Assembly (NCBI GenBank): GCA_015066005.1
Contig: SVPF01000005.1
Span: 17,244-81,243 of the forward strand
Direction: 5' to 3'
Length of the DNA stretch: 64,000 bases
DNA from: Oscillospiraceae bacterium
Lineage (GTDB): Bacteria > Bacillota > Clostridia > Oscillospirales > Acutalibacteraceae
Both the position numbers and the translations under genes were made by a program. The notes under the pieces are model-generated. The model was not told where the DNA came from. It searched no databases and worked only from the letters and a program-made list of their open reading frames with translations. Below, one piece after another: positions 41,173 to 41,523 of the stretch. Position 1 is the first letter of the stretch. Each line of letters opens with the position of its first letter.

Positions 41173-41333
41173 TATTATTACCTCCTTATTATAGATTTTC
41201 TTGACGAATATGTATAAGCGCATAAAGCGTTTGTACAGAAACATAATCCGTATTATGTCATATACGAGAGCATTAAAAAAGCCTTCGCTGTATCATCGCG
41301 AACGCTAACAATCTGAAACGGGTATAAAAAGCC

Positions 41334-41368
41334 AAGCCTTTTCATTTTTAAGTGTGAGAAGGCTTATT
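41334..41368. terminator. Hairpin inside the invertible segment, terminator-like on the minus strand
   Basis: AAGCCTTTTC...GAGAAGGCTT; on the minus strand followed by GGCTTTTTATA. Confidence 0.5.
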
Positions 41369-41426
41369 TGTGTTATATTGAAAATCAATAATCATCTTAC
41401 ATATCATAGTTTGGGGTACGAGTCCC

Positions 41427-41455
41427 TTGACTTTTTGCAAATGTAGTGCTATAAT
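41427..41455 (+). promoter_or_regulatory. Near-consensus sigma-A promoter inside the invertible segment, directed away from the surface gene
   Basis: TTGACT (41427-41432), 17-nt spacer, TATAAT (41450-41455). Confidence 0.78.
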
Positions 41456-41523
41456 GCGTATGTAATATAGTTTTTTGTCCGTATTTTTACATTCAATAGC
41501 AACATAATACGGATTATGTCTTT

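What the first reader, a model, noticed from the sequence alone, without database searches (positions are those of the whole stretch)
41241..41519. Candidate invertible promoter (inverton) between a SipW-type surface protein gene and a tyrosine recombinase
Seen directly: ACATAATCCGTATTATGT (41241-41258) and its exact reverse complement ACATAATACGGATTATGT (41502-41519) flank 243 bp. Each site is itself a dyad of 7-bp arms (ACATAAT/ATTATGT) around an asymmetric CCGT/ACGG core, the layout expected of tyrosine-recombinase sites, and the asymmetric cores are in inverted orientation. The segment holds TTGACT-N17-TATAAT (41427-41455) on the plus strand. The surface gene starts on the minus strand at 41172 with a strong SD and no convincing promoter of its own. 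A tyrosine recombinase with the R..HxxR..H..Y set starts its 3' end 28 bp beyond IR-R. Established parallels are RecV/cwpV and the flagellar switch in Clostridioides difficile and Mpi-type switches in Bacteroides. Inference: this assembly captured the OFF orientation. Inversion (x -> 82760 - x) would put the -10 at 41305-41310 facing the gene with a ~125-nt leader.
Basis: partly seen in the sequence, partly recalled or inferred. Interest (0 to 1): 0.93.

Follow-up and report, generated by a model that had tools for sequence, protein, structure and literature searches.

The report
Flip-flop promoter for a surface protein
A 243-base stretch of DNA carrying a promoter is bounded by two mirror-image recombinase sites, so the enzyme encoded next door can flip it to switch a bacterial surface protein on or off; close relatives, caught in both orientations, use the same kind of switch in front of many different genes.

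Summary
Two 18-bp sites (41241-41258, 41502-41519) are perfect inverted repeats around 243 bp that carry a TTGACT-N17-TATAAT promoter. The promoter faces away from the SipW-type surface gene (OFF) and towards the 3' end of an adjacent XerD-like tyrosine recombinase. About 147 related loci, mostly gut Clostridia, have the same layout. Near-identical relatives with 95-99% identical flanks differ only by inversion of the segment. In an unbiased DNA-pattern scan, all 13 evaluable site pairs lay beside this recombinase, and the control pattern gave none. Site arms track the recombinase phylogeny, not the host genome. Additions: a conserved terminator just outside the segment stops the OFF transcript before it enters the recombinase gene; hairpins inside insulate the target gene from the recombinase transcript; the same switch type sits before adhesins, signal peptidases, DNA methyltransferases, helicases and FliE; one relative (L021) has lost the segment. 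The flipped allele of this very locus was not seen. The family probably matches 'inverton group 139 / invertase group 35' (PMC11892184), but its repeat motif could not be read. It is a new, well-supported member of a known kind.

The parts
41241..41258 (+). Gene-side recombination site ACATAA-TCCGTA-TTATGT (site L)
   Evidence: family consensus AACATAA-TNNNNA-TTATGTTGTA
41502..41519 (+). Recombinase-side recombination site ACATAA-TACGGA-TTATGT, exact inverse of site L (site R)
41259..41501 (.). Invertible segment, 243 bp
   Evidence: homologous segments found in both orientations in relatives
41427..41455 (+). Outward promoter TTGACT-N17-TATAAT (TG-extended), facing the recombinase end in this assembly (OFF); -10 ends 46 nt from site R
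   Evidence: best promoters in relatives end 20-59 nt from the site they face in 80 of 86 loci
41334..41365 (.). Internal hairpin AAGCCTTTTC...GAGAAGGCTT, likely terminator on both strands, insulating the target gene from recombinase read-through
   Evidence: + strand -16.2 kcal/mol, z -5.2; - strand -10.0, z -2.8 with tail GCTTTTTAT; conserved in relatives
41274..41306 (-). Second, weaker terminator-like hairpin with TTTTTT tail, facing the surface gene in the OFF orientation
   Evidence: -11.9 kcal/mol, z -1.9; same position class in relatives
41524..41548 (+). Terminator in the linker (GCCGCC-GCTTTT-GGTGGC TTTTTTT), stops the OFF transcript before it runs antisense into the recombinase gene; its T-tract overlaps the recombinase stop codon
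   Evidence: 40 of 57 non-redundant linkers have one facing the recombinase, 0 the other way, 0.1 in shuffles
41547..42389 (-). Tyrosine recombinase, 280 aa, XerA/XerD-like, proposed invertase of the switch
   Evidence: PF00589 + PF02899; below XerD equivalog cut-off; best solved relatives XerA/XerC-like 4a8e, XerD 1a0p; catalytic residues
39745..41172 (-). Switched gene: 475-aa SipW-type secreted protein with right-handed beta-helix C-terminal part
   Evidence: TIGR04088; homologues named right-handed parallel beta-helix / SipW-dependent; model pLDDT 81.6, closest folds beta-helix carbohydrate enzymes
41180..41188 (-). Shine-Dalgarno sequence TAAGGAGGT of the switched gene
39278..42557 (-). 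Block shared with L021 in a different genomic setting (recombinase, switch region, SipW-type gene, trailing hairpins): the apparent transferable unit

Best explanation
This is a phase-variation switch: an invertible promoter worked by the neighbouring tyrosine recombinase. The recombinase binds the two dif-like 18-bp sites (6-bp arms ACATAA/TTATGT around the asymmetric centre TCCGTA), exchanges strands in the centre and inverts the 243-bp segment. In the assembled (OFF) orientation the sigma-A-type promoter fires towards the recombinase and its transcript ends at the linker terminator (41524-41548), while hairpins inside the segment keep the recombinase transcript out of the surface gene. After inversion (ON) the promoter faces the gene with a leader of about 125 nt, and the SipW-secreted beta-helix protein is made. 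Shown by sequence: sites, promoter, terminators, recombinase, and, in near-identical relatives, both orientations. Inferred: that this recombinase alone catalyses the reaction, that inversion occurs in this strain, and that it changes surface-protein output.
For: Exact anatomy. Both orientations in near-identical loci: L036/L102, L039/L155, L146/L155, L139/L146, L039/L149, with flanks 95-99% and segments 95-98% identical only when inverted. 147 related loci have the dyad site pair. In 117 of 119 loci the two 4-nt cores are identical in inverted sense although 41 different cores occur among loci and none is palindromic, as strand exchange needing core identity predicts. An unbiased DNA-pattern scan of 299 genomes found 15 pairs in 12 genomes; the control pattern found 0; 13 of 13 pairs not cut by a contig end have the recombinase 12-93 nt away. 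ACAAAA-armed sites belong to one recombinase clade (support 100/99) drawn from three genomes, one of which (G309) also has ACATAA sites with other recombinases. Promoter placement is conserved. Terminators are conserved. Invertons of a Clostridia tyrosine-recombinase group shift orientation in read data (PMC11892184).
Against: No flipped allele of this very locus was found; the nearest metagenome relative is only 81% identical in the recombinase, and contigs holding recombinases 98% identical or more could not be fetched. No reads, no transcript ends and no enzyme assay are available. The closest relative with a held locus, L021 (86%), has a single site and no segment, so the switch can be lost, or was mis-assembled there. 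A host XerD-like protein also exists.
Confidence: 0.93

Rival explanations
1. The promoter does invert, but the host's housekeeping XerC/XerD, not the adjacent enzyme, acts on the dif-like sites.
For: The sites resemble the dif core (own knowledge of dif: CATAA-6 bp-TTATG). The genome encodes a separate XerD-like protein on contig C38 (314 bits).
Against: The recombinase gene is beside every evaluable pair found by DNA pattern alone. Arm variants follow the recombinase clade, and different arms coexist in one genome.
Confidence: 0.05
2. Locked or dead switch: the sites are remnants and this strain no longer inverts.
For: The assembly is in one orientation only; about three quarters of relative clusters are OFF only (64 of 84); some relatives have a single site (L021, L071, L098, L125).
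Against: Sites, promoter, terminators and catalytic residues are all intact, and the two sites remain 18 of 18 identical, which needs continued exchange or constraint.
Confidence: 0.1
3. The inverted repeats are paired operators or processing sites, and the promoter serves only an antisense or regulatory RNA.
For: Each site is itself a dyad, and the promoter points at the recombinase 3' end.
Against: Relatives show true inversion of the segment between the sites, and the outward transcript meets a conserved terminator.
Confidence: 0.02
4. An integrative mobile element: the recombinase is an integrase and the sites are its attachment sites.
For: The 3.3-kb block is found in different places in the window and in L021, and the family is patchy in the order (107 of 394 good genomes).
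Against: The sites are inverted, not direct, and enclose a promoter without any gene; they do not bound the transferred block.
Confidence: 0.03

Closest known systems
Inverton group 139 with invertase group 35 in the hCom2 gut community (PMC11892184)
   Same: Clostridia; tyrosine recombinase within 5 kb of nearly all members; inverton of about 205-227 bp between the repeats in the two examples listed; flipping seen in reads
   Different: The repeat motif is only in a supplement I could not open, so identity with this family is probable, not shown. The main text does not describe terminators of the switch, site structure or SipW targets.
E. coli fim switch (fimS with FimB/FimE)
   Same: Short promoter-bearing segment flipped by adjacent tyrosine recombinases to switch a surface structure
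   Different: The recombinase is not of the FimB/FimE family (30 bits against a cut-off of 221); there is one recombinase, not two; sites are longer and dif-like
C. difficile RecV / cwpV switch (PMC2784873)
   Same: Clostridial surface protein, Xer-family tyrosine recombinase, about 195-bp inversion upstream of the gene
   Different: There the promoter lies outside the inverted region and OFF works by termination; RecV was found only by testing recombinases drawn from the whole genome and acts on several switches
Single-recombinase Xer systems (XerA, XerH, XerS) and dif
   Same: Closest solved structures (XerA/XerC-like 4a8e, XerD 1a0p, XerA 5hxy); site arms resemble the XerD half of dif
   Different: Two inverted sites flanking a promoter rather than one site at the terminus; below the XerD equivalog cut-off (131.9 against 329.6)
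Bacteroides Mpi-type invertible capsule promoters
   Same: Invertible promoters controlling surface molecules
   Different: Mpi is a serine recombinase acting on many sites in trans (PMC5903667)

Membership tests
Invertible promoter (inverton) | Intergenic segment flanked by inverted repeats | tested here: met
Invertible promoter (inverton) | Outward promoter inside the segment | tested here: met
   (by sequence only)
Invertible promoter (inverton) | Both orientations exist: in homologous loci | tested here: met
Invertible promoter (inverton) | Both orientations exist: at this very locus | not testable with these tools
   no reads; contigs with near-identical recombinases not fetchable
Invertible promoter (inverton) | Orientation changes target expression | not testable with these tools
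   needs reporter or RNA
Inverton group 139 / invertase group 35 (PMC11892184) | Shared inverted-repeat motif | not testable with these tools
   motif is in the supplement, not readable
Inverton group 139 / invertase group 35 (PMC11892184) | Adjacent tyrosine recombinase in Clostridia | tested here: met
Xer/dif chromosome resolution | XerD equivalog score | tested here: not met
   131.9 bits against 329.6; the host has a better XerD
Xer/dif chromosome resolution | Single site per chromosome | tested here: not met
   two inverted sites 243 bp apart
RecV/cwpV-type terminator switch | Promoter outside the invertible segment | tested here: not met
   strong promoter inside, none convincing outside
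FimB/FimE invertases | NCBIfam tyrosine-type DNA invertase score | tested here: not met
   30.1 bits against 221
Mpi-type serine invertase switch | Serine recombinase | tested here: not met
   tyrosine recombinase domain PF00589 with R-H-R-H-Y

The most novel reading that the evidence does not exclude
The unit is one copy of a widespread, portable, insulated promoter-switch cassette of Clostridia: a dedicated Xer-derived recombinase, a pair of locus-specific dif-like sites, an outward promoter, a two-way terminator inside and a one-way terminator outside. It is moved in front of unrelated genes (adhesins, secretion peptidases, restriction and methylation systems, flagellar genes) and confers phase variation on whatever lies downstream. 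As a described cassette with this anatomy and payload range it would be new.
Probability: 0.4. Interest if true: 0.68.

Novelty: new member of a known kind. Interest (0 to 1): 0.5.

Why it matters
It gives a concrete, testable phase switch for a secreted matrix-like protein in an uncultured gut-type Clostridia lineage, and places it in a large family in which one recombinase type drives very different targets, including DNA methyltransferases and restriction genes. Because recombinase, sites and promoter fit in about 1.2 kb and site centres vary between loci, the family is also a natural source of compact, possibly orthogonal inversion switches. For genome readers it warns that such genes may look promoterless in an assembly only because the OFF orientation was assembled.

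Tried and rejected
(1) Searched the own genome for other copies of the site: none with 0 mismatches, so no trans targets here. (2) Looked for the flipped allele of this locus in JGI metagenomes: best relative only 81%; near-identical proteins exist but their contigs could not be fetched. (3) Considered that different cores in multi-copy genomes are selected to keep switches apart: of 19 within-genome pairs with both sites read, 18 differ and one (G102, both TCCACA) is identical; judged by eye against the spread of cores, that is about what chance gives, so I do not claim it. (4) Absence of palindromic cores (0 of 41 types, about 3 expected) is suggestive only. (5) A B. subtilis-like dif was not found in the own genome within 3 mismatches, so the dif comparison rests on general knowledge.

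Full report
What is there. The window is part of contig C46 of a 1.97-Mb genome, 88% complete, in 53 contigs. Its relatives are Clostridia: one genome of its order, G108, carries the same site pair as Merdimmobilis hominis An559, family Oscillospiraceae (placement by inference). The two 18-bp sites are exact inverses 243 nt apart. One such repeat occurs in the 64-kb window and none in 100 Markov simulations. No other perfect copy of the dyad is in the genome.

Anatomy. Reading on the minus strand: recombinase gene (42389-41547), 27-nt linker, site R (41519-41502), segment, site L (41258-41241), 68 nt, ATG of the surface gene (41172). The segment holds TTGACT-N17-TATAAT (11 of 12, TG-extended) pointing at the recombinase. 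The linker holds a terminator (stem GCCGCC/GGTGGC, -11.2 kcal/mol, z -3.2, then TTTTTTT) that faces a transcript leaving the segment. Inside lies a hairpin AAGCCTTTTC...GAGAAGGCTT (+ strand -16.2 kcal/mol, z -5.2) that is followed by a T-rich tail on the minus strand too. A second, weaker minus-strand terminator-like hairpin lies at 41274-41306. So in this orientation the promoter's transcript is cut short and recombinase read-through meets hairpins before the surface gene. In the inverse orientation the promoter faces the gene.

The proteins. The recombinase (280 aa) has PF00589 and a SAM-like domain, R139, H226-x-x-R229, H252 and Y261, and falls well below the XerD, XerC and FimB/E cut-offs. 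Its closest solved relatives are XerA/XerC-like and XerD proteins. The switched protein has a SipW-dependent signal peptide; homologues are named SipW-dependent or right-handed parallel beta-helix. The model (pLDDT 81.6) matches beta-helix carbohydrate enzymes with low TM-scores, so a polysaccharide-binding or matrix role is a guess. The genome has SipW-type signal peptidases elsewhere and five other SipW-type signal matches.

Relatives show the inversion. From genome, metagenome and viral collections, 147 loci have a dyad site pair after the recombinase 3' end (a few are the same place fetched twice). Several near-identical loci differ by the segment's orientation only: L036/L102 (flanks 95.3% and 98.8%; segment 33.9% as read, 98.3% inverted), L039/L155 (97.8%, 98.0%; 32.2%, 97.9%), L146/L155, L139/L146 and L039/L149. 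L036 and L039 have the promoter towards the gene; L102 and L155 away from it. Among 84 segment clusters, 64 are OFF, 17 ON and 3 both; assemblies show the commoner state, so OFF probably predominates. This is a census of assemblies, not a rate.

The sites belong to the adjacent recombinase. A DNA pattern alone (two dyads 218-247 nt apart), scanned over 299 genomes of the order, found 15 pairs in 12 genomes; the reversed control pattern found none. Thirteen pairs have the recombinase 12-93 nt from the nearer site; the other two are cut by a contig end. The two cores of a locus agree in 117 of 119 loci although 41 cores exist among loci, and cores change between sister recombinases. That is what strand exchange through the centre requires. 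Sites with ACAAAA/ACAAAC arms go with one recombinase clade (support 100/99) found in three genomes; one of these, G309, also has ACATAA sites beside recombinases in another part of the tree. This argues against the host XerC/XerD as the main actor, though such a protein exists.

Conserved design. The best promoter's -10 lies 20-59 nt from the site it faces in 80 of 86 loci with a good promoter. Linker terminators face the recombinase in 40 of 57 non-redundant linkers, none face the other way, and shuffles give 0.1. Terminator-like hairpins occur inside the segment on one strand in 44 and on the other in 36 of 82 non-redundant segments, against about 6 and 5 in shuffles.

Payloads differ. Of 75 downstream proteins, 12 are SPFH/Band 7, 12 have zinc ribbons, 6 are SipW-type signal peptidases, 4 are collagen-like adhesins, 3 are type III-like DNA methyltransferases, 2 are DEAD-type helicases and 2 are FliE. 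The downstream gene was taken as the first open frame with a ribosome site after the distal repeat, so some assignments may be wrong. L085 and L153 have recombinase ends 92.8% identical and segments that match at about 90% in inverted sense, but different methyltransferase operons downstream: same switch, exchanged payload. The window's own unit (39278-42557) is found in another genomic setting in L021, with the recombinase 86% identical and the last part of the surface protein replaced.

A lost switch. In L021 the segment and one site are gone; linker, one site with centre TACGGA and the 68-nt leader remain. This may be a real deletion that leaves the gene without its promoter, or an assembly fault (coverage about 6 in the record title). 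Loci L071, L098 and L125 also show one site.

Distribution. Relatives at E 1e-75 or better occur in 107 of 394 good genomes of the order, in 74 of 172 genera, but, at the looser limit of 1e-30, in only one of 36 other genomes of the window's genus. The patchiness suggests transfer or frequent loss.

What is known. Invertible promoters and tyrosine invertases are well known. PMC11892184 reports inverton group 139 (33 invertons, 32 in Clostridia), its strongest inverton-invertase link, to a tyrosine recombinase group, with orientation shifts in reads for Clostridium sp. D5 and Intestinimonas butyriciproducens. This is probably the same family, but I could not compare motifs. That paper leaves invertase tests and terminators to later work. 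The window's locus is therefore a new member of a known kind, with added detail on architecture, site logic and payload range.

Noticed in passing
L021 4001-6294: Closest relative with a held locus (recombinase 86%) has lost the invertible segment and one site but keeps the SipW-type gene: a natural deletion allele or an assembly fault.
   Followed up: partly
window 39278-42557: A 3.3-kb block (recombinase, switch region, surface gene, trailing hairpins) is shared with L021 in a different genomic setting, with the C-terminal part of the surface protein exchanged; no terminal repeats were recognised by eye.
   Followed up: partly
L085, L133, L153, L160, L161: Near-identical switch cassettes stand before different DNA methyltransferase or restriction operons, so phase-variable restriction-modification by promoter inversion is likely in these Clostridia.
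   Followed up: partly
L037 4862-4884, 4925-4947, 5179-5201 (also L011, L048): Some loci carry three sites, with one side duplicated, so two alternative inversions and a deletion are possible.
   Followed up: no
G309 (L198-L203): One single-contig genome (98% complete) has six relatives of the recombinase, five with site pairs that differ in centre or arms.
   Followed up: partly
G102 contigs C7, C8, C20 (L236, L241, L243): Three switches in one genome, two with the same centre TCCACA, which could cross-react; two lie within 60 nt of a contig end, as if the recombinase gene broke the assembly.
   Followed up: no
L072 5206-5517 and L082 5241-5552: In Lachnospiraceae isolates the same layout precedes fliE, suggesting a flagellar phase switch in Eisenbergiella tayi and a relative.
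   Followed up: no
L136 923-940: Site broken inside or just past its centre (ACATAATCGAT then unrelated sequence), which looks like a rearrangement breakpoint at the crossover region.
   Followed up: no
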